Positions 3,931 to 18,000 of a stretch of DNA of 64,000 bases are shown piece by piece (within the stretch, counting starts at the first letter, position 1; each line of letters starts with the position of its first letter). Location of the stretch: the NCBI GenBank assembly GCA_020726505.1, contig JAHLEZ010000014.1, positions 372,001-436,000 of the forward strand, written 5' to 3'. A program made the translations under genes and the position numbers. Under the pieces are notes generated by a model. That model saw nothing but the letters and a program-made list of their open reading frames with translations. It searched no databases and was not told where the DNA came from. The DNA is from Leptodontidium sp. MPI-SDFR-AT-0119 (Eukaryota; Ascomycota; Leotiomycetes; Helotiales; Leptodontidiaceae).

Positions 3931-5091
3931 CGGGCAGCGCAGCCTTGCTGAACGGTCTGAACGGTCTGAAATAGGGGCTAGGTACAAGCGAGAGGAGCGG
4001 AATGTAAAAAATGCCTGGAGACTGGAGAATTATCGATAGCAGGTCAAAATTTTCAAAAATTCCCAAGACCATAACTCCAACAGCTCGGAAAATGGAGATA
4101 AACTCGTCCACCCCGCCAACAGGGTAGTCTTGGCGTCGGCGGTAATTTCACGTGATATCATGCACCTCGCCGCATTTCCAGGCTTGCCGGGCTGGTGCAA
4201 GGATGAAGGATCGAATTCTCCAGCATTTCCAACATCGTCCGGCCGGTTGTAGTCTGTTTGTTCTCGTCTCGACATACGTAAAGACCCCTTGCCTCTATCA
4301 TCTGGAATTGGGAATGTAATGAAAGCAGAACACACCCTCTCTGCAGAGGGAAAAGATCGCAGCTTTGCGATATATCCCACGCCCAGCATTGTTGACCCAC
4401 AGCTGGGCCTCGGTCGTGGCTCTCACATACGACTCCAGCGCTTCAACATGCAGCCAGCGCAAGTCATCACGACTCGAGGTGCTCATGCTGCGTTGTCTCG
4501 ACAACTGTCTTGCATTGATAGGACGGGAGGACGGAAAATTAATGCACTGGCATATGGTTCGTGAGCCCGGGCGCCGACGAGATGCGTTGTACTGCACATC
4601 GCCAGCACCTGACTGCCCGATACCACGTCTCGCGGATCCTCGGGCAGCAGAGAATCCTCCTCACTGGCTGCCTGACTCAAGACATGATGCTGGCGATCAC
4701 GAACTTATCACATCACTCAATGATCTTCGCCGGTGGAGACATATTCGCTTGCCGGATCCATAGAGGGAGCATTGGTTGTGTATAAAAGTCCGGATTGGGT
4801 GGTTTTTGACGCCCGACGATGCAAAATTTCACATCTCAGCCCGGATAAACTGGCGGCCCGGGTCGACTACAACAATTCCACCCCCACAGCACCTCACCGA
4901 CTCTCCTACGTGAAATGAGGGTTTTCCCAAAAGAAGATTCCATCACACACACTTTATTATTCACAACGCATAAAGTTGTGTTGCTCCCGCATCAGGTGAG
5001 GTGTGGATAGCTAGGGCAGGTAATGCAACCATAAGAACTCGCAGAGTTTTTCTTTCTTCCCCCCTTCTTTTCCTACCACATATTAAGACGC
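3931..5091. other. Intergenic region with the promoter of the repeat-protein gene
   Basis: No convincing gene. A short tandem duplication (ctgaacggt twice) lies at 3956-3973. A TATA-like tataaaag is at about 4781, and a C/T-rich tract (about 5049-5076) lies just before the ATG at 5092, as in many expressed fungal promoters. The overlapping open frames at 4030-4920 show no recognisable domain. Confidence 0.5.
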
Positions 5092-7908
5092 ATGTCTTCG
5101 CTATTGACCCTCTTCTACGTCCTCCTAGCATCATCCCTCACAGTGATGTCTTCTACTTCTGTGCTCTCACGCCTACGGGCAAAACTCTCCAGTCAGCCCC
5201 AACTGTTGGAAGGCCCCAAGTCCGGAACCCAGCAAGCACAGGATCGAGATGCCCTCCAGAAGTCAATATCAGATGCCGTAGCGGCTGCCCTCAACAACGA
5301 AGAGTTCACCAAAGCAGTTGCCAATCATCTGGCTATTCAGCTTCAACCCTCCCTCAAGGCTGCCCTGGATATCTCTGCCGTCGAGTCAAAACTCCTCGCA
5401 TCAAACGAAGAACTCTCCCAGAGAATCAACGAAACCACTACACAAACGACGTCCAAGATCTCCGAACTCTCGACACTCGTTGATACCTCAAACACCACAA
5501 CCACCGAGAAGCTATCGGCCCTCGATGGAGCTGTCACGAAAATCACCGACTCGCTGGTGGAGTTAGGAAACAACATCAAGGTGGTTCAGGAACAAGTTGC
5601 ATCTCCGGATACTTCTTTGTTGACTACACAAGGACAAAAATTGGATACAATCTCTACCGGACTGCAAACTCTGCCTTCTCAGTTGGAGAAGCTTGATACT
5701 ATCACTGCAGAGTTGGCTATTATCAAAGAGAATGCCGAGACTGTTGCTTCATTGAAGTCCATTTCTTCTGAGCTTGCTTCGGTCAAGACGGATCTTGAGG
5801 CTAGCACTAGCACTGGATTCTCCGGATTGAACACCCAAGTCGGTACTATCATCACTGCCATTGAATCTCAGAACTCCACATTGTCCGAGATCAAGGCCGC
5901 AGACTCAACTCCCGCCGTTGCTAGTCTCGAATCACAAATCGCTGCTCTCTCGACTGCCGTCTCTGGTCTCAAGAGTTCCGATGTCACCCCAGAAATTCTC
6001 GCCGCCGTCAAGTCATCAAACGAATCGCATGCTTCCCACGCCAAGGCATTGGCTGATATCCCAACTTCCATCGGCGAGATCAAGACCGTCGTTTCCACAC
6101 CAGCTCCTCTCCCTGAGAAGGTTGACCTATCATCTCTCGAATCCTCAATTCAAAGCCTTACCGCCACTGTTTCTGAGATCAAGACTGCCGTCGAGACACC
6201 TGCACCTGCCGCTGAAAAGACTGACCTTACTCCTCTCCAGACTTCGGTTGATAAGCTTGTCTCGACCCTGGATGGACACACTGGTACTCTTGGTGAAATC
6301 AAGTCTGTTGTTGCTGTCCCAGCTCCAGCAGCTGAGAAGGCCGATCTCTCCGGATTGGAAACATCAGTTGAGAAGCTCTCTGCCACCCTCGCTGAGATCA
6401 AGGCCGCTGTTGAGAAGGAAGTACCAGCTGCTGAGAAGGTTGACCTTGCTCCACTCACCACCACTCTCGACGCACACACCACCCACTTGTCAGAGATCAA
6501 GTCCGTCATTTCAGCTCCAGCCGCTGTTGCTGAGAAGACCGACCTGTCAAGCTTGGAGGCATCTATCGAGAAGTTGTCGGCATCTCTTGCTGAGATTAAG
6601 ACTGTCGTCGAGAAGGAAGCCCCGGCCGCCGAGAAGGTTGATTTCTCTCCTTTGGTTTCCACTCTGGATTCCCATACTGCCCACTTGACTGAGATCAAGG
6701 GTCTTGTTGCTACACCTGCCGCTGCCCCTGCTGTTGAGAAGACCGATCTTTCCGGACTCGAGTCATCAGTTGAGAAGCTCTCCGCTACTCTTGAATCCCA
6801 CACTGGCCACCTCACCGATATCAAGGGCGTCGTTGCTGTCCCAGCACCAGCTAGTGAGAAGGTTGATACCTCTGCCATCGAGAGCTCCATCAGCAAAATC
6901 CAAGCTCTTGTTGAAGCTTTCCCAGCCAGCATCAAGGATGACGAGATTCTTGCATCCGTCGCATCAATCAAGGCAATCGTTGAAGCTATCCCCGCTCCCG
7001 TTGCCGGGCAAGCTGTCAAGGACGACGAGATTCTATCATCTTGCGCTGCCATCAAGACTCTGATCGAGGGCCTCCCAGCACCATCTGCGCCAGTTGCTGG
7101 CAAGGATGACGAGATTCTTGCTTCAGTTGCCTCTGTGAAGGCTTTGGTCGAGGCTATCCCAGCTCCAGTTGCAGCAAAGGAGTTCAGCGATGTTGAGATT
7201 CTCGCGGCTATCAAGGCCATCCCAGCACCAATTGCACCAAAAGACATCAAGGATGATGAGATCTTGGCCTCCGTCCAATCCGTCAAGGCATTGGTCGAGG
7301 GCCTGCCAGCACCAGCTGCTCCAATCGCAGGCAAAGATGACGAGATCCTCGCAGCGATCAAGGCCATCCCAGTGCCAGCTGCACAAGTGCCAGGCAAGGA
7401 TGACGAGATCCTGACATCCATCGCTTCCGTCGAGTCCCTTGTTAAGGCACTCCCTGCACCAGCCGCCGCAGTCCCAAGCAAGGACGACGAGATCCTCTCT
7501 TCTATCGCCTCAGTCGAGTCGCTTGTCAAGTCTCTTCCCGCACCAGTTGCACCAAAGGACATCAAGGATGAGGAGATCCTCGCATCCATCGCCTCGGTCT
7601 CGACACTCGTCCAGGCTATCCCAACCACCTCACCAGCCGACAAGTCCGAGGAGATCATTACCGAGATCAAGAGCGTGAAGGTCGTCGCTGAGGAGACCAA
7701 GAAGGAGGCTGCTGCTCTTACCACCATCATCAGCTCTGGTCTCGACAAGGAGATCTTGAGCGAGGTCAAGATCGTTAAGGGTCTGGTTGAGAAGCAGAAG
7801 AGCGCTGTTGCAGTTGCTGATGTTGGAACTAACGACAAGGGCGCTCCTGTCAAGGAGAATGGAAATGGTGTCAAGGTTGACGCGGTTGAGATCGAGTCTG
7901 AGGCTTAG
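5092..7908 (+). CDS. Large repetitive, probably coiled-coil protein
   Basis: A single-exon frame of 938 residues. The first residues (MSSLLTLFYVLLASSLTVM) could be a signal peptide or membrane anchor. A second in-frame ATG at 5146 (MSSTSVLSRL) would give a protein without it, and the sequence does not decide between them. Residues about 20-330 are rich in Ser, Thr, Glu, Leu and Ile with heptad-like spacing. Residues about 340-600 hold long repeats around EKTDLSSLEASIEKLSASL followed by EIK and Pro/Ala linkers. Residues about 610-840 hold shorter repeats around KDDEILASVASVKALVEAIP. The C-terminus is Lys/Glu-rich. I do not recognise the family; the composition suggests an elongated scaffold or surface protein. 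No Cys-rich or catalytic motif is visible. Confidence 0.8.
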   Translation: MSSLLTLFYVLLASSLTVMSSTSVLSRLRAKLSSQPQLLEGPKSGTQQAQDRDALQKSISDAVAAALNNEEFTKAVANHLAIQLQPSLKAALDISAVESKLLASNEELSQRINETTTQTTSKISELSTLVDTSNTTTTEKLSALDGAVTKITDSLVELGNNIKVVQEQVASPDTSLLTTQGQKLDTISTGLQTLPSQLEKLDTITAELAIIKENAETVASLKSISSELASVKTDLEASTSTGFSGLNTQVGTIITAIESQNSTLSEIKAADSTPAVASLESQIAALSTAVSGLKSSDVTPEILAAVKSSNESHASHAKALADIPTSIGEIKTVVSTPAPLPEKVDLSSLESSIQSLTATVSEIKTAVETPAPAAEKTDLTPLQTSVDKLVSTLDGHTGTLGEIKSVVAVPAPAAEKADLSGLETSVEKLSATLAEIKAAVEKEVPAAEKVDLAPLTTTLDAHTTHLSEIKSVISAPAAVAEKTDLSSLEASIEKLSASLAEIKTVVEKEAPAAEKVDFSPLVSTLDSHTAHLTEIKGLVATPAAAPAVEKTDLSGLESSVEKLSATLESHTGHLTDIKGVVAVPAPASEKVDTSAIESSISKIQALVEAFPASIKDDEILASVASIKAIVEAIPAPVAGQAVKDDEILSSCAAIKTLIEGLPAPSAPVAGKDDEILASVASVKALVEAIPAPVAAKEFSDVEILAAIKAIPAPIAPKDIKDDEILASVQSVKALVEGLPAPAAPIAGKDDEILAAIKAIPVPAAQVPGKDDEILTSIASVESLVKALPAPAAAVPSKDDEILSSIASVESLVKSLPAPVAPKDIKDEEILASIASVSTLVQAIPTTSPADKSEEIITEIKSVKVVAEETKKEAAALTTIISSGLDKEILSEVKIVKGLVEKQKSAVAVADVGTNDKGAPVKENGNGVKVDAVEIESEA
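6100..6870 (+). repeat. Protein-coding repeat array A (long units)
   Basis: In-frame tandem units of about 40-60 codons. Each has Glu-Lys-x-Asp-Leu, a Ser/Leu helix, an optional HTxHLxEIK segment, and a Pro/Ala-rich linker ending in Ala-Glu-Lys. Unit lengths differ because the HTxHL segment is present in only some of them. Confidence 0.8.
6922..7620 (+). repeat. Protein-coding repeat array B (short units)
   Basis: About ten units of 20-28 codons with a core Lys-Asp-Asp-Glu-Ile-Leu, then a Ser/Val helix and a Pro-Ala-Pro linker. Some units are shortened (AAIKAIPAP), which suggests growth by unequal exchange. The array follows array A without a break in frame. Confidence 0.8.
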
Positions 7909-8488: not shown

Positions 8489-10153
8489 TTAAAACTTCAG
8501 AGTTTCACTTCCATTGTCAAAGTTCCTGGCATTTCCTGGCCGAACGCTCTGGAAGGAGGTGTGAGTCTCTTCCCCGTTGCAAAATAGGCAAGGTTCCCAT
8601 TGGCCCAATCCAACATCAAACCATCCAGTGCCATTGTAACAATTCGTGCACCTCCGATTTAATTCTGTTATGCCGCAGTGAAAACAACATTTTCTCCGTT
8701 GGGAATCCATATGAGGAAGGCCGGAGCGGCATTCATTGCAAGGCTGGAAAACACTTCGGTGCCTGTCAAATCCAACCGCATGAGGGGCGCTGGAGCCCAA
8801 GTTGTTGAAAGATGCAGCTGCAGTTGCCGCCATAGCTATCACCGATGCCGACCGCGATATATCTCTGGTTCCGTTTGGAGCAAGGTCAGGGCTAAACCCA
8901 GTAAACGCAGAAGAGGTGTTTGCCTGAAAGAAATCAAACCCATCGTTCATAACATCCATGGCGGTGCCAAGCCCCTTGGACACCATTGTTGAGACTGCTG
9001 GCAGAACTACATCCTTGGGATCTACTTCGTGGTTCAAATGGTCTTGGGGGCGCAAGTGAGTATCATCGCCACTGGGGAAGAGCAACTCGCTGACGGAAAG
9101 TCGATTTAGCCTGGGATCTGATTGAGATGTTGGATCCCGTACTGAACGTGATGCATCTTGAAAATCAACGTCGGTCTGTTCTCCAGCCATACCGCCAGGA
9201 TTTAAACGAGAGAGTCCGGTGGGCGAAACGTTATAACGCCTCTTCGGAATTACTGCCGGTGTTGGCAATGGGCTAGTAGGAAGACCTTTTTCGATCAGGG
9301 AATCGGTAGTTTTTGCTACCTCCTCCCACTCAGTTCTTCCAGAATCTACCTGACGCTGATAGAAATTTTTGACCTACTCGTAAATGTTAGATAGCAGGTT
9401 TCATTGTGTATCGACAATACAAGTGTGTAGTGACTGGAACGGGCGTACCATGATATGTGTTTTTGATGTCATCCACTTCGCAATACCATGCCAGTTGGTA
9501 CCGGAATGTGCCAGGAGGGCTGGAGGGTCAGTCTGTTCTGGAACACTCCAATAAGAAGAGGTCTGCTGCAAAAGCTGATTGTCTTGTTTGGGCTCAGGAA
9601 GTGGTGGTGGCGGCGGCGATGGTGATTGTGTTACTGGAACTACAGGGCAACTCGATGGAGACATCTCGTAGCGGGTACCAGAGGGACTGCGTGGTGCATA
9701 AGTCTCGATCCGTCCTATCCCCGTAAGGGAGGGGTAAGACGGAGATACTAAAGCCCTTGCAACAGATGACGGAGAGGTTTCCAAGGATTCCCCGAGTTGC
9801 TCGTTAGTCGTATTTTTGGTGACAGCGAACTTGCTCAAGCATTTCCCCGTACCCCGTTCTTCTGGGCTCAAGAGCCTTTCCCACTCTGGCTCTGTGATAG
9901 CCAGCTGCATGTCATCGTATGCAATAACAGCGTTTTTGATAGCGCATTGTCGATCCTCCTCCCAGTCATAGTCATATTCCCATGCGTCCAGTTTCCACCA
10001 TTCCCGTGACAACCACCACAAGCCAGAGTCATTCTGCACCGCAACCGACTTAACGAGCCTGGAGGCACGAGTCTGTGGTCTACAGGCGGTTTCGCGAGGC
10101 ACTTTCAGGCTTAGAAAATACAAAGTAGGCGAGTTCACGCTTAAATATATCAA
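8489..10153 (-). CDS. CxxC zinc-binding protein, 5' end unresolved
   Basis: Two exons join in frame: 9449-10153 and 8489-9373, with a 75-bp intron 9374-9448 (GTACGC donor, CTAAC branch, TAG acceptor). The C-terminal third has four CxxC pairs (CNEC, CFHC, CTNC followed by NGTG, CLFC), spaced like a DnaJ-type or ribbon zinc module. The centre is Pro/Ser-rich with a PPPPPLPEP run. The N-terminal part contains a Trp/acidic block (WWKLDAWEYDYDWEEDR, AYDDMQLAITEPEWERLL). The frame opens upstream without an ATG, so a first exon, a later Met or an annotation error must be considered; 10153 is only the limit of the open frame. It lies 103 bp downstream of the NACHT gene on the same strand. Function unknown. 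Confidence 0.55.
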
Positions 10154-10256
10154 CGAACGCTTAATCGTTTTGCTTTATTATTGAAATACACGATAAAGAA
10201 GAAGTATATCTGTCTTTCTATTAACTAGATTTTTGAATTGTTATTTTGCGTAAGAA

Positions 10257-13200
10257 TTATTGTTTTTCATTTGGCTGTGAAATGCTGCCCCCCAGCGCAC
10301 AGATCTGTGCCTCCAGGCTCGTAATATTCTTCAACAAAAGGTCATAGCGGGTGTTAGGAAGCTTGTCCTTGAGGTCTTCTACGCTAAGGGGATCGACGGC
10401 AAGGAGGTGGATGATATCTCTTCGGGTCGTTTCTGCCTTCTTCTTGACTTCCTGGTGCTCAGAGTACATATATCGATCGAAGGTGCTATAGACCGGACCC
10501 TCGAGAGTATTTGGTTGATTGCAATTTGTACAAGGGCGTGACACATCTGTGATCGCATGCGAGCAATTCTGGCAAGTCGCGATCTCTAGCATGTACCCAT
10601 CGCAGGGAAAGTGCTCTCGTACGAAATGGGTATGTAACTTCTCGATGGTGATGAAAGGACTGATATGACATCTCCCTCCCAAATGTCCGCATCGGAAGTG
10701 TGAACCTCGCTGCATGCCTATGACAAATGGTTGTCCGTCTTGGTAAGATGCATAAGGGTCTGACGTTAATTTCTGCAATTGTTTAGGCGTTGACTCCTTG
10801 GGGCTTCCCTGCTCTGGAGCCTGTTGTCCTGTGCCTTCTCTAGAACGTGGCGAATCCATACGCACATCTGAAACTTTCGATTCCGGCATATAATTTCGAG
10901 TAGGCTGCCGAACCTCTCCTTCGCGATCATCATTACTTGACGATGGATTCTGTTTTCGACGTCCTTGGGGTCCTTGGACTTGCACAAGTTGAAGCTGGCC
11001 AGCGTCGTCTGTCGTTACTATTGGTCGGATCTCATGGTCCGAAGATTCGAAGGAACTAGAGGCTCTGATAGTCTTGGTTTCTTTTGATCGATGTTTGAGA
11101 GAAGGCAGTTGTATTTTCTTCGGAGGACGTTTATTTGCCTTTTGCTGCCGTTGGAGTCGCTGCCGATCCGTTGCAGAGTGCCGGTCTAGTATTAACGATC
11201 GCGGTTTGCAATCAGCACAAGAATGGTCGAATTCCTCTCTTGAGGCATCTTCAACCTGTCCAGGGTAATAGCATTCAATATGTTGCCATGCATCACACTT
11301 TTCGCAGTAGATAGTGTTTCCGTCATCATCACTGTAATCGCAAATGCACTTGATAGTGTAGGGCTCTTCCTCCACAGAGTCGATGATGGGCCGCTCATTC
11401 ATTGCGTCGGAGACTATCAGAAACTGCGACTCTTGCGAGGATCTGATACCCCCTTTTGAATGGCCGAGCATCAAATCGACTACTGGCTCTGAGTGAAAAG
11501 AACGACGAGATGAGCGAGGTGAGTATGACACGTCGGAAAGGCTATCGATATACTCTACAACTTCTGTTGAAGACACAAGAAGCTCGGCGGGCGTAGCCAG
11601 AGATATTTTTCGAGACGTGGGCTCATCCCGTCGTAGCGACGTGCTAGATTCTATCGACCTCTTATCCGCACGTAGCGATGGCAGAGGATGAAGGCCACTG
11701 ATGAGCTCGGACAGGCTAGAAGTCGTCACATCAAGAGATTGGTGATATTGCTTATTGTGTCGATTCAAGGCCCCTCTTTTAGCAAATCCGGAAGTGAAAT
11801 TGATACATTCAGGGAAATCGCATCGAAATTGTCTCTTGTGGGCTGCCTCGTGTGTATCCCGTTGAGTCGAGCTGTCGAAACCGTCAACTGCCCTTGCACA
11901 TTGAAGATAGCGGCAAGTAAATGCCCCAAGCCCATAAGTATCCGAAAAAAGCTGAAGGGTTTGATGATCTATCGTAGGGAGCAGACGCCAGGAGCTTCGG
12001 TCTAGAAGAGACTCCAGAATGATTTGGTAATTGTGACCTAGTGTGCTGAAGTATGTTGAATCCGAGTCGCAGTCTTGATGTGAAATGTCTGAAAGTTGTC
12101 AGGTTCGTGAACGAACGAAAAAGAAAACGCCAGGAATGCCTGCCTTCAATCGATTTCTCGAAGTCATCAACCTCATTCGTCGCTTCTGCCTTATTTCTGG
12201 AGCTTCTAGCGTTCAAAATGAGAGATTGAACTTTGGGGAGCTGATCCAAAGCGTGCAAACCTTTTACATCATCCGCGTTGGTAATTTCTGCGGCTTGTGG
12301 CCCAACTGAGACTGCAGGGGGTTTCTGATATCCTACCAGTGTAATCAACTGAGCGACAAGCGATCGAGGAATTGGCTTGCTAGTAGAACTGCAATACGTA
12401 AGTAGGTGGTCGCTCCAGTACCGATTGGCGTATGGAAGTAGTCCATGAAGGCCTGTGGCGACGGCGGCGGCTTGTTGCCCTCTGGTCGAGCGATTCGGAA
12501 GTAAAGAGTAAGCGGTATTAAGATATGCCACACAAGAGAAGCTGATGTGTAGATGAGCTTCAGAGGAATTCAGGAAAGGGCTTCCACCTTGGGCTCCACT
12601 TTTGAGTATAAATCTGCGGTTTGTTAACCTCTGAGAAAAGCACAGCGTGAAATTTAGAGGTGTACTCTTTTGCAGAAAAGTGGACAAATTCAAGGATATT
12701 CGATGACCCATACTCAATTAGGGGCCGACAGAGATTCAGTACTTCAGGGTCCATTTTCGGGCGAGCATCGAATGAAGAATTTTCGGGTCTGAATGATATG
12801 CCATCTACCAATTCGTAGACTTTCAGTGGTCTTTGTGAGCATGCCATCCACTCTAGAATGCTGATAGCAAGAGCGGCGGCCGGTTCCTGCACAATCCTGT
12901 CGAGTATCCGTCCATATCTGGGAGGAAATTAGCTCGCTAGACATTGTTGGGCTTCGATTAAGAACTGACGCTGCTTCCAAGCCCTTTGGCAAACTTTTTG
13001 AACTCTTTTCCAGGTCCCAATCGCTGTAACAACTCCGGAGCACCTCTACCACGAGATGAACCCAAAGAAACATCCCTGCGAGTATAAGCATGAGGAATGT
13101 GAGATCAGGCGGAGTACCTTACCACCAGCGTTCTTGATCAGCTCCAACTCGATGCTCTCTCGCAATTCTGGGTTAGAAGTCTTGACTTTCTGCATCTTGT

Positions 13201-14722
13201 ATTTGATGAAGCTTTTTATATCCAGATTCACTTCTGCGCGACCATCCAGTACTACACAGGGCTTCCTGGCGAGTTGTTTAGCGAGGCTGACCTCCCTTCG
13301 ACTCGAGAAGAGGATCTTGCAATTGGGGTTGTTGGCTAAGCAGACAGTTTGCAGTTCCTTGAGGAGCAACTTTTGAGCTTCCTTCGAAGTCTCGTCGACA
13401 CCGTCGAGAATAATCCTAGTGGAACATGACGCTGCGAGCATCTTTGGAAGAAGAGCCCTGAGTTGTACCAAACCGCATGTTTTGTGGAAGAACTCGTTGG
13501 AGATGAGTGAAGCTAGGTCCGGATGTTGCCGAAGGAGCTGCAGAGCGAAAGTTCTCAGGACGAGGTTGCAAGAATCATGTATGTCTTGACTTGTGCAAAA
13601 ATAGTAAAGTGTGTCAATGGCTTCAGTTTCCAGCAACCTGCCCACAATATACGAAGACATCACGCTCTTACCTGGCGGTGTTGTTAGTCGTAAGAAGGCT
13701 CTGAGTGAGAGGGAGGGGGGCGGGGGAGCCGTACCTGCTCCAGGTTTTCCACTTAGCCAGACAATATTATCTTTCCCGTCTGATTTCATCCAAGCCTTCA
13801 ATTCTGGCTGTTCCATAATCCACCCACAAGTTTCGTCGTGCCGTCGACGACAGAGTCGTTCAAGGCGCATTCCCTGGCCATCATCATCGACTGACAACCA
13901 AGCTACTGATTGCTGGAATTGTAAATTTGTCAAAATTGACTCGTTCTGTTCAATCAGGAGAAGTGACTGCTTTTGTCGTTGCTCAATCTCCTCTTGGGCT
14001 CGGATCCTTGCCTCCTTAGACTCGAGGATATCAATCGAAACCGCCTCCCGGTCAATGAAATCTCGCTGCTTCCTGAGACCGTCGATGATGCCCGCGAATC
14101 TTGTTCCGAAGTCTTTCCAGAGTGATTGAAATAGAACATGCCATGCCCTTCTTTTGAGGAACTTGTACGCTCGCTGATGAAACTCGAGAATGCCGTTGTA
14201 AACCGATGCAAGGACGGAATGAAAGGCTGGGTTGTCCTTAAATGCTTGCTCGTAGCGATCAAATCTAGGCAGGGCAGCACCTATCTCTTCATAGGCTCCG
14301 AGAAGTGCTTCAAATACATCACGATGATGGCTTGCAATCTGTATTTTAAATAAGTAGCCATCCGCAAAGTAGGGTTCGTAGGTACTACCTGCAACATCAG
14401 CTTGATAGGGGCCTATTTTATATCAGCATTTTCATGGACAGGCAGAAGTAGTAGAGTCACAAACCCAAATGTACGGCATGTATGGAGTCCCGTTGCATAG
14501 AACTTCGATAACCTTCGAGTATTTCTCTAGACCTCTCAAGAAAGGCTCGATCCGACGCAAATTCTGCGCAGACTGACTCTGTCGGTGTTTATTATCAATC
14601 TCTCGCACCGCCCGCCAAACGTCTGCAAGCTCCGTGGACGCAAAATCGTAGGCATCATCCTCTGAAACTGATTGCTTCAGCCTCTTGAAGGCATCTGCAA
14701 TAGTAGTGACGGGGGCAGTCAT
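10257..14722 (-). CDS. NACHT NTPase with C2H2 fingers and a PHD finger (NLR-like)
   Basis: Eight exons, all phases consistent: 14465-14722, 14389-14412, 13735-14338, 13123-13671, 12970-13075, 12666-12917, 12129-12613, 10257-12088 (1369 residues). Residues 1-94 (ELADVWRAVREI, VIEVLCNGTPYMPYIW) match the N-terminal domain of many fungal NACHT proteins (DUF7708-like). A helical region follows (YKFLKRRAWHVLFQSLWKDF). P-loop GKPGAGKS at about 291-298 is rebuilt across intron 13672-13734; Walker B IILDGVDE is near 382; GMFLWVHLV and VHFSAKEFI are standard markers. Two C2H2 fingers lie at about 816-873 (FTCRYLQC, FRCDFPEC with their His pairs), a Cys4-His-Cys3 PHD finger at about 1004-1050 (CICDYS, CEKCDAWQHIEC, CADC), then a further C/H cluster (FRCGHLGGRC, HFVREHF, CQNC, CTNC). 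NACHT proteins oligomerise on ligand binding; the zinc modules suggest nucleic-acid or histone binding. Intron 12089-12128 is only 40 bp; a 55-bp alternative ending at 12074 also keeps frame. Confidence 0.85.
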
Positions 14723-15035: not shown

Positions 15036-18000
15036 ATGGCAATGATGCCTCATTGTGGTGATTCTTGGGAAGATGTGGGGTTTGACGGCAACAGTGGCAT
15101 TGATGGGCGGAACAGCAAGCGCAGGCGACTAAACCCCAGCATTCCTCACCCAGGCTGCCCACCACCACCAAAGTACATTTCCACGACATATAACTGCATC
15201 TCTGTACAAAGCCTTGTAAACACATCACACAGTCATAATGCCTCAATACCGCCAGAGCAGAGCTTCGGACTGGCCGCCAGCGTTAGAGCTGGGAATTCTA
15301 GCGAGGTCAATTCTGGGGACAGCCTGCCCGAGGAACCCTCGACACTCCACCAGGAGTGTTGCTATGGCATGGTGAGCAAGCTTTCACTTCCTCCCTTTGA
15401 ATGTATCTAATACGATCTGGAATAGCTGCCGAATATTCGTGTGAGACTTTCTGCTGGCGTTCTCGAGTCTACAAAGCACCTCCCCGTCCTCTTCGAATCC
15501 TTAGGCACAATACGGCTAGAAGACAGCAGCAGACCCGAAACGTTTCAAATCGAAAGCCCAACCCATATATCCGCCTTGAATCAAATATTAGCTGCGAAAG
15601 AGATCTCCATACAGCCATATTGCAGTGTCAGGACGCCAGCTCCAGCTAGACAGCAACATTTGAAAGGGAAGCGGGGTGGGAGATTTCAACAATCATGGAC
15701 ACTGAACGTCATTATATATGGACCTCAAGAGCTCGAAGGGGCTATCGGCCAATTCTTGTCTCAGCAGAAGATGTACCTCCAAGATCCTCTGCACTGTGAC
15801 CGTAGTGTACCATATCGGAACCCACACATAATACCGCCAGAGAATGGAGAGGTGTTGATGACAGACTCAATAGACTCTCACTCTGCGAACTTAGAAATTG
15901 AACGCCTAGAAGCTGGGCCCGACCTTCTCTCTCAATTGATGAGTGATGCAGTGCCTCTGCCAGAAACCCAGCCTTCTGACATTGTAAAGACCGCTTTATT
16001 CTGGTTTGTCTTCCCGTCTCTCTACTTTCACGTTCGAACCAAGGCTACCTTACTAACTTAAGTCCCAGCCATCAGAAGCAGGCACTAACTTTCATGCTTC
16101 GTCGTGAGCAGGGTTGGCAGATGGATGGCCCAGGTGACATATGGACATCAAATATGGATTTCTTGGGTCGAACCAGGTGAGCCAAATCAGCTAAACCCCA
16201 TGACCTCTCTCTAACACCCACGCCCCCAAGATACAGGAATAATGTCAGTGAAACATATCAGGCTGAGCCTCCAGCCCCTTTCAAAGGAGGTCTCCTTGCA
16301 GATGATATGGGACTGGGAAAGACTCTTAGTATGATATCCGTCATTGCCAGCAACCAGATCCCCAAAAGCTTCCCTTCCCCTCCAATGACCCCCGAGCCGA
16401 TTGATAGTGCCGGTGTTAAAACTACACTCCTGATAGTTCCACTTGCTCGTATGTGATCTTGGCCCATTGATCAGCCGTTGGAACTAACATATTGGCAGTC
16501 ATTCAGTCTTGGGAGGAACAATTTAAGCTGTATGTACTCTCCGCATGTCACTAACCATTCACTTCTGGCCGTTGTTGTCTTGACGTTGTGCCAGAAATCG
16601 TACCTAGTAGCTAAACTTCTTTGCTAGACATCTCAGGAAAGATTCCCTAAAAGTCCATGTGTTTCATGGGCAGAATCGGAAAACTGTGGACTTTCTCACT
16701 ACCTTCGATGTAGTCATCACAACCTTCCATACCATCTCGTCTATCTGGAGGAAGTGGAAAGAAAGGCCAAGCCATTCCAAATCAATATTCTCGGTCATTT
16801 GGCATCGTGTTGTTCTCGATGAAGGTAATCAAATCTCGATCCTGAAGTGGCTTAGGTCTGACCATTTCTACAGCTCACATCATTCAAAACTCGCAAAATC
16901 ACCTTGCACAATCATGTTGTGCTCTGCGGTCGACCCATAGATGGGCCATAACCGGAACGCCTATCCAGAATAAGCTATCGGATTTTGCCAGCATTGTGAC
17001 CTTCCTCCAAGTCCACCCTTATTCGGACCAGGTCACATTCGACGAGGAGATTTCAAAACCTTGGCGACGTGATGATTCATTAGGATTTTTAAGACTGAAG
17101 ACTCTAGTCCGTGCCATCACAATTGCCCGGACCAAAGCAGTAGTTCATCTTCCTCCCAGGGAAGATTTCATCCATCACATGAACTTCACCTCGAACGAAC
17201 GTCAGATATATGAAGATGCCAAGAGACATACAGTAACATTACTTCGAAATGCAGCCTCCTCATCCTTTGAAACCCGGACAACCGTGAATGCACTCCAGCG
17301 CCTTAATGTCCTTCGTCTGATATGCAGTCATGGCCTTCTTTCGCAGTCATACCTCGCAATGCAGACCCCAGGCCAGAGCACGCCTTGCACGGACACTCAA
17401 ACCCCATTCGGGAACTCATTCAGCAGTGATACTTTGGAGGAACTCTTCGACGGGTCTTATTCTTGTGTACAGTGTGGTTCTACTATGATCGACGATCTCG
17501 TAGGAGGTTCTCAACGACGCAAGCAAGGCGTGCCACCCAATTCCGAGATTAGCCTCTCAACCCTCTGTCTCGAATGCAGACCACAGCCAGTACATTGCGG
17601 ATTCGGACGGCAGGATCTTGCTATGGGCGATCTTGATATTCCCGACAGCCCGATGAGCACGGGATTGTCACCAACCCCCGAGGTTTGTCAAGACTACACT
17701 ATTATGTCCATGCCGACCAAGATCAAAGAGCTCGCAGCAGATCTAGTCTCTCACGGATCAAATGAAAAGAGGTGAGTTTACCTTTGAAGTCTCTGAATTG
17801 GCGGCCGACTAATGTGATACAGTGTCGTCTTTTCTTACTGGACATACACTCTTGACTTGGTTCAAACGGCGCTTGATGACAGTGGGATTGAGTACGCTCG
17901 TTTCGACGGAAAGATGTCCCCAGCAAAACGGACCCAGGCTCTCCGCTCTTTCCAGAGAGACCCTTCCATCCGTGTGATACTTGTTTCAATCACATGTGGC

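What the first reader, a model, noticed from the sequence alone, without database searches (positions are those of the whole stretch)
10257..14722. NLR-like NACHT protein fused to C2H2 fingers, a PHD finger and a further Cys/His cluster
After splicing, one continuous 1369-residue frame joins a NACHT engine (P-loop GKPGAGKS, IILDGVDE) to two C2H2 fingers, a textbook Cys4-His-Cys3 PHD finger and another C/H-rich block. NACHT plus C2H2 is familiar in fungi; a PHD reader on the same chain is, to my knowledge, unusual. It suggests a receptor that reports to chromatin or senses altered nucleosomes.
Basis: partly seen in the sequence, partly recalled or inferred. Interest (0 to 1): 0.78.

Follow-up and report, generated by a model that had tools for sequence, protein, structure and literature searches.

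The report
Fungal receptor carrying captured Set3 finger
A fungal immune-type receptor carries a copy of the histone-reading finger of the chromatin regulator Set3, a fusion also seen in a few relatives, which suggests that such receptors watch over, or sit on, the cell's own chromatin machinery.

Summary
Confirmed: minus strand 14722-10257 encodes one spliced frame (7 introns; 1364-1373 residues by intron-7 donor) with DUF7708, NACHT, winged helix, two C2H2 fingers and a PHD finger; C2H2 and PHD share one uninterrupted exon. The 1364-residue version equals a GenBank protein of Leptodontidium sp. MPI-SDFR-AT-0119. New: the PHD segment is a copy of the N-terminus of Set3, a histone-deacetylase-complex subunit (72% identical to own SET3 over 116 residues; nearest solved structure yeast Set3; pocket residues kept; amino-acid change far below synonymous). 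NLRs of Lachnellula, Trichoderma velutinum and, degenerate, Peltula carry one too; several captures are likely, but tree tests do not prove it. Other relatives carry other chromatin or transcription domains there. The stop codon lies in a 268-bp MITE; beyond it the strand continues, collinear with a paralogue, into an ELL-like stretch and a SANT 36/40 identical to the probable own SNT1, a second Set3-complex subunit (Pfam sees neither). Most likely an NLR with integrated chromatin-regulator domains serving as bait or sensor; chromatin docking is a close rival. Function is untested and the gene may be truncated in this strain.

The parts
10257..14722 (-). NLR gene, eight exons: 14722-14465, 14412-14389, 14338-13735, 13671-13123, 13075-12970, 12917-12666, 12613-12144 (or 12129 or 12117), 12088-10257
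   Evidence: GC-donor version identical to GenBank P0001
14039..14542 (-). DUF7708 N-terminal helical domain (with introns 1 and 2 inside)
   Evidence: PF24809 55.4 bits; coordinates
13298..13834 (-). NACHT (NPHP3_N); P-loop GKPGAGKS 13750-13664 across intron 3, IILDGVDE 13414-13391
   Evidence: PF24883 110.5 bits
12592..12874 (-). winged-helix domain (GPIID_WHD), across intron 6
   Evidence: PF22939 31.4 bits
11742..11915 (-). pair of C2H2 fingers
   Evidence: 7 of 8 ligand columns invariant, the eighth at 90% or more, in 49 aligned relatives; coordinates
11097..11402 (-). segment copied from the SET3 N-terminus; PHD core 11348-11199
10509..10691 (-). further Cys/His block: C2H2-like unit plus CxxC...CxxC ribbon
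   Evidence: sequence by eye; no Pfam match above cut-off
10325..10424 (-). start of ELL-like stretch (RRDIIHLLAVDPLS...), cut by the MITE
   Evidence: weak match to paralogue L022 and orthologue P0121
10054..10321 (.). MITE, 268 bp, 25-bp inverted repeats, TAA duplications at 10051-10053 and 10322-10324; holds the stop codon of the annotated frame
9824..10021 (-). rest of ELL-like stretch
   Evidence: C6 match at 56% to P0121 tail; aligned to own ELL; Pfam silent
9233..9565 (-). SANT domain like the second one of the probable own SNT1, with an intron at 9448-9374
   Evidence: Pfam silent on the pieces
8489..9232 (-). open frame to stop with a Cys-rich end

Best explanation
It is a fungal NLR (STAND ATPase) with integrated domains. 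Shown by sequence: a DUF7708-NACHT-winged helix-C2H2 receptor carries, in its C-terminal part, a copy of the N-terminal segment of SET3 with its PHD finger; beyond a later MITE insertion the same strand carries an ELL-like stretch and a SANT like that of the probable own Snt1, another subunit of the Set3 histone-deacetylase complex. Inferred: the captured domains are an integrated sensor or bait. Something that binds or modifies the Set3 complex (a mycovirus or microbial effector, or a change in H3K4-methylated chromatin) engages the copy, which frees the NACHT engine to oligomerise and lets the N-terminal DUF7708 helical domain signal. In this strain the receptor probably ends just after the zinc block because of the MITE.
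For: Origin: 116 of the 120 listed hits have the PHD at residues 39-137, the SET3 layout; nearest solved structures are yeast Set3 5tdr and 5tdw; own SET3 is 72% identical over 116 residues; the SET3 start MTERP is echoed as MNERP. Retention: PHD core pN 0.036 against pS 0.741; over 79 codons pN 0.069, pS 0.570. Pocket Asp and Trp (PMC9399681, passages) are kept in P0001, P0002 and P0240. Recurrence: NLRs P0002 Lachnellula and P0240 Trichoderma, and P0152 Peltula, degenerate, whose best matches in this genome are SET3 and this gene. Linkers and post-PHD tails show no clear similarity between the three; a two-residue insert after KPR is shared with SET3 of its own group and absent from both NLR and SET3 of Lachnellula; five PHD-bearing tips need five changes on the NLR tree. 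Sensor position: relatives have WD40 (P0156, P0187) or ankyrin (P0170) after the same point. Second piece of one complex: SANT 36/40, intron at the same place.
Against: No functional or expression data. The AU test rejects neither one clade of the three NLR PHDs (p 0.434) nor Leptodontidium plus Lachnellula (p 0.537), and the PHD tree leaves this copy unresolved, not beside own SET3. Inserts of two residues also arose in other SET3s (P0047, P0055). Most tail domains found in relatives are nuclear, which fits an output role as well as a bait. The MITE may have made this copy useless. Pfam finds nothing in the pieces beyond the MITE, and own SNT1 is named from weak NCoR matches (E 0.0015-0.003) and layout. 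No factor attacking Set3 was sought. Fold prediction of the PHD failed.
Confidence: 0.55

Rival explanations
1. The PHD, C2H2 and SANT parts are outputs, not baits: the protein is a nuclear NLR that docks on H3K4-methylated chromatin through the Set3-type PHD and, once the NACHT engine fires, changes transcription, loosely like mammalian CIITA (recalled comparison).
For: Tail domains in relatives are mostly nuclear: KIX (P0128, P0196), PLU-1 plus PHD (P0122), SGF29 Tudor (P0194), bromodomain (P0171), Zn2Cys6 (P0240), Myb (P0169, P0173). The C2H2 pair is kept in 49 aligned relatives. Acidic DFDFDSFL-type tails: a motif in 25 of 82 tails, shuffles mean 7.4, maximum 17, and 0 of 30 control NLR ends, though relatedness inflates it. 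PHD pocket residues kept.
Against: WD40 and ankyrin repeats occupy the same place in P0156, P0187 and P0170, which points to the sensor side; tails change between close relatives, as for sensors; two domains from one complex at one locus suggest a target.
Confidence: 0.3
2. A recently broken gene: the MITE removed the ELL-SANT end and the remaining frame is a decaying remnant without present function.
For: MITE with target-site duplication in coding sequence; stop codon inside it; collinear frames on both sides when compared with P0121 and L022.
Against: 613 codons of exon 8 open up to the MITE; frames beyond it still open to 8489 with the SANT intron kept; strong constraint on the PHD over the long term. 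The MITE acting as an intron is not excluded.
Confidence: 0.12
3. Two neighbouring genes wrongly read as one.
For: Intron 7, just before the C2H2-PHD exon, has ambiguous donors.
Against: C2H2 and PHD share one exon, and the C2H2 pair belongs to the NACHT subfamily; GenBank has the same junction; P0002 and P0240 have the same order in other genomes.
Confidence: 0.03

Closest known systems
Set3 (yeast PHD structures 5tdr, 5tdw; human relative MLL5)
   Same: PHD finger and flanks: 72% over 116 residues to own SET3, up to 82% over 91 columns to another SET3; zinc ligands and Asp/Trp pocket residues kept
   Different: No SET domain; the segment sits behind a NACHT engine and two C2H2 fingers
Fungal NLRs with a putative integrated decoy: CHK-2 type kinase in Sordariales NLRs (PMC12258605, sections 14 and 20 read)
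   Same: C-terminal copy of a domain of a single-copy core gene behind NACHT
   Different: Domain from a chromatin regulator; found in several lineages; the word PHD is not in that paper's main text
DUF7708-NACHT-C2H2 relatives (Cadophora P0121, Lachnellula P0124, Botrytis P0132)
   Same: Same core: 68%, 53% and 48% identical over 93-98% of residues 1-905
   Different: Tails differ: ELL-like, none known, short acidic
Cadophora gregata P0059 (2174 residues, no NACHT)
   Same: Holds both a Set3-type PHD and an Snt1-like SANT (48/84 to SNT1)
   Different: C2H2 and RRM protein without an NLR engine

Membership tests
Fungal NLR (STAND NTPase, NACHT clade) | P-loop and Walker B of a NACHT module | tested here: met
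   NPHP3_N 110.5 bits, cut-off 24.8; motifs in frame
Fungal NLR (STAND NTPase, NACHT clade) | STAND core fold with winged helix | tested here: met
   GPIID_WHD 31.4 bits; the model of relative P0125, not of this protein, matches NRC4, CED-4 and Dark over about 247-610
Fungal NLR (STAND NTPase, NACHT clade) | canonical C-terminal repeats (WD40, ankyrin, TPR) | tested here: not met
   none by Pfam; a few subfamily members have WD40 or ankyrin, and most listed do not, so the feature is not obligatory for the subfamily
Fungal NLR (STAND NTPase, NACHT clade) | signal-induced oligomerisation and immune output | not testable with these tools
   -
Set3-type PHD finger | C4HC3 ligands and the CICDxxDDDGxTIxC..CD.WQH signature | tested here: met
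Set3-type PHD finger | nearest relatives are SET3 PHDs, not other PHDs | tested here: met
Set3-type PHD finger | binding of H3K4me2/3 | not testable with these tools
   pocket Asp and Trp kept
NLR with integrated decoy | domain duplicated from a host gene that is still present, fused to an NLR | tested here: met
   own SET3 on C56, copy in the NLR
NLR with integrated decoy | presence/absence variation among close relatives | tested here: met
   P0121 has no PHD though its tail runs on into the ELL-like stretch; the only other Set3-type PHD in this genome is SET3
NLR with integrated decoy | domain is the target of a pathogen factor | not testable with these tools
   -
PIF/Harbinger-type MITE (the inserted element) | terminal inverted repeats, 3-bp TAA/TTA duplication, many copies | tested here: met
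   the superfamily name is recalled, no transposase was sought

The most novel reading that the evidence does not exclude
A subfamily of fungal NLRs repeatedly captures pieces of the cell's own chromatin and RNA-polymerase-II regulators (Set3 PHD, Snt1-type SANT, ELL, KDM5, KIX, SGF29, bromodomain) and uses them as integrated baits or anchors: a guard system for the nuclear machinery, centred in this lineage on two subunits of the Set3 deacetylase complex.
Probability: 0.4. Interest if true: 0.85.

Novelty: new variant of a known kind. Interest (0 to 1): 0.62.

Why it matters
What fungal NLRs detect is mostly unknown. A domain traceable to one donor gene names a candidate target, the Set3 deacetylase complex. 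If the fusion is recurrent, and a second Set3-complex piece sits at the same locus, fungi may guard their chromatin regulators with integrated domains; that can be tested directly with histone peptides, pull-downs and deletion of the domain.

Tried and rejected
AlphaFold of the PHD segment (20 rows) gave mean pLDDT 48.6 and was not searched. Fold matches of P0125 cover mainly residues 247-609; the fold of the N-terminal DUF7708 domain stays open. Single origin of the NLR PHDs: not rejected for three (p 0.434) nor for Leptodontidium plus Lachnellula (p 0.537), although the Trichoderma copy groups with Trichoderma SET3 at 97/95. Idea that SANT domains of lichen-type NLRs also come from Snt1: of 15 proteins tried, 9 matched the pattern and score better with SNT1's second SANT (62-89) than its first (25-39), but a genome search with one of them (P0174) gave one weak hit, E 0.02, which is the SANT of L025, not SNT1; not claimed. 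Idea that the Cys/His block is DUF7896: no such match. Transactivation-type tails: excess over shuffles, inflated by relatedness; a lead only. MITE as an intron: possible splice sites were looked at by eye, none clearly kept the frame; not excluded. P0139's Q-rich tail looked like Med15 from memory; Pfam found nothing. Absence of a PHD in relatives rests partly on gene models that may be cut short: at L022 and L025 domains follow where the matching models P0138 and P0137 have ended; this genome was therefore also searched at DNA level. One search lists 8 of 2127 papers and says little.
Full report
What is there. The minus strand from 14722 to 10257 gives one frame after removal of seven short introns (47-63 bp; six GT-AG; for intron 7 a GC donor or two GT donors fit, giving 1364, 1369 or 1373 residues). 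The 1364-residue version is identical to GenBank's hypothetical protein BKA61DRAFT_612024 of Leptodontidium sp. MPI-SDFR-AT-0119, order Helotiales. Pfam places DUF7708, NPHP3_N (NACHT), a winged helix and a PHD finger. C2H2 fingers and PHD lie in one exon that is open for 613 codons, so the fusion is physical. In 49 aligned relatives seven of the eight C2H2 ligand columns are invariant and the eighth is at 90% or more: the paired C2H2 is part of the subfamily. A relative, P0125, was modelled well (mean pLDDT 82.9), and its core matches NLR resistosomes and apoptosome proteins.

Where the PHD comes from. A search scoring residues 790-1369, limited to proteins of about 753-2396 residues, listed 120 of 403 hits. 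Besides this protein, P0002, P0016 and P0059, all 116 others have the PHD at residues 39-137, the layout of SET3, and many are named SET-domain or SET3-related proteins. The nearest solved structures are the yeast Set3 PHD, 5tdr and 5tdw. The genome's own SET3 lies elsewhere (C56, 995-codon frame with PHD and SET just under their Pfam cut-offs); a search with a related SET3 N-terminus finds it (96%), this gene (72% over 116 residues), and two weak matches at 37% and 31%, although the genome has at least 17 PHD matches. The copy begins MNERP, like the SET3 start MTERP, and ends in KRPPKK where SET3 has KRPPSKSHKKK. Between the copy and own SET3 the PHD core shows 5 nonsynonymous differences in 139.7 sites but 21 synonymous in 28.3; over 79 codons, 13 in 189.7 against 27 in 47.3. 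Part of this constraint belongs to the SET3 branch, but an unconstrained copy should show far more amino-acid change. The pocket Asp and Trp known from structures (PMC9399681, passages) are kept here and in P0002 and P0240; P0152 has lost the Trp.

How often. Among the 117 NACHT proteins a PHD pattern occurs in three, P0001, P0002 and P0122; P0122 is of KDM5 type (PLU-1 246 bits, then PHD). Pfam, run on 20 of the 117, adds a weak one in P0152 (PHD_5 23.4 bits, cut-off 27). A search for a Set3-type PHD in proteins of about 1196-3804 residues scored 15 candidates and returned 12: three NLRs (this one, Lachnellula suecica P0002, Trichoderma velutinum P0240), P0059, P0236, and seven others whose PHD looks SET3-type, three of them with a SET domain. 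On the NLR tree the five PHD-bearing tips need five changes, with the caution that some relatives' models may be short. The PHD tree joins the Trichoderma copy with Trichoderma SET3 (97/95) but leaves this copy unresolved, and the AU test rejects a single origin neither for three (p 0.434) nor for the two helotialean copies (p 0.537). The junctions speak for separate events: linkers and tails around the PHD show no clear similarity among the three (best pairwise E 0.006 over 21 residues), and a two-residue insert follows the species group rather than the receptor, though such inserts arose elsewhere too. I take several captures as likely, not proven.

What else the tail held. The stop codon of the annotated frame lies in a 268-bp element, 10054-10321, with 25-bp inverted repeats, at least 39 other long matches in the genome (102-282 bp, 70-95% identity) and a TAA duplication; 7 of 7 other copies fetched have TAA or TTA on both sides. 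This is a MITE, by its duplication probably PIF/Harbinger-like (recalled). About the last 20 residues of the annotated protein are encoded by it. Before it the frame reads RRDIIHLLAVDPLS; after it the strand continues with an ELL-like stretch and a SANT. The order C2H2, ELL-like occurs uninterrupted, without a PHD, in the near orthologue P0121 (68% over 93% of residues 1-905), and C2H2, ELL-like, SANT in the paralogue L022. Pfam finds nothing in the two pieces beyond the MITE; their identity rests on the genome's own genes: an ELL (PF10390 25.4 bits, cut-off 22.9) and a 2050-codon frame, read through an intron, that I call SNT1 from its layout and its nearest structures NCoR1 and NCoR2 (E 0.0015-0.003). 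The SANT copy is 36/40 identical to the second SANT there, and the intron after its ATG codon sits at the same place in SNT1, in this gene and in L022, so it was copied as DNA. The paralogue L025 has two SANT copies. FgSnt1 is a Set3-complex subunit with two SANT domains (PMC9728937, passages). The locus thus drew on two subunits of one complex. Cadophora P0059, without NACHT, carries both pieces as well.

What the subfamily shows. Tails of relatives contain KIX (P0128, P0196; below cut-off in P0171), PLU-1 with PHD (P0122), SGF29 Tudor (P0194), bromodomain (P0171), Zn2Cys6 (P0240), Myb with DUF7896 (P0169, P0173), but also WD40 (P0156, P0187), ankyrin (P0170) and, below cut-off, WW (P0161). 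Apart from the last three the list is nuclear.

How it may work. Shown: an NLR engine, a copied and constrained Set3 PHD, further pieces of transcription regulators on the same strand, a MITE that ends the frame. Inferred: the tail is the sensor side, since canonical sensor repeats take its place in a few relatives, and the copies serve as bait for factors acting on the Set3 complex or as a reader of H3K4-methylated chromatin. The opposite reading, a chromatin-docked output, is nearly as good. In this strain the ELL-SANT end is probably lost or separately expressed.

What is known. PMC12258605 (sections 14 and 20 and passages read; [quoted passage not shown] its main text does not contain PHD. 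The main texts of PMC9815663 and PMC4986451 contain neither PHD, zinc finger nor C2H2. In the listings I saw no paper on such a fusion; one search showed only 8 of 2127. Supplementary tables could not be read, so an entry there is possible. The plant survey PMC12787737 does not contain PHD in its main text either.

Noticed in passing
window 5035-7908 (+) and L025:1771-3193: The gene beside the NLR encodes a 957-codon coiled-coil repeat protein; its close paralogue in the genome is a broken copy on C36, split between 82357-82898 and the flank of the NLR paralogue L025, so receptor and coiled-coil gene were apparently duplicated together.
   Followed up: partly
L022 and L025 (G000 C14 and C36): NLR paralogues followed on the same strand by DUF7896 and SANT pieces, and in L022 an ELL-like stretch, beyond where the matching GenBank models seem to end.
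   Followed up: partly
L024 (G000 C8:426000-435900): A relative of Cadophora P0059 with an Snt1-like SANT but no NACHT found.
   Followed up: no
P0125, P0132, P0141, P0142: Short acidic tails with DFDFDSFL-type motifs after the C2H2 fingers of helotialean relatives.
   Followed up: partly
P0236 (1606 residues, unnamed source): Set3-type PHD in a long protein in which Pfam finds no other domain.
   Followed up: no
P0241, P0242: SET3-type PHD annotated in one protein with an amino-acid permease; possibly annotation fusions.
   Followed up: no
window 16846-17775 (+): SNF2-related ATPase frame near the NLR.
   Followed up: no
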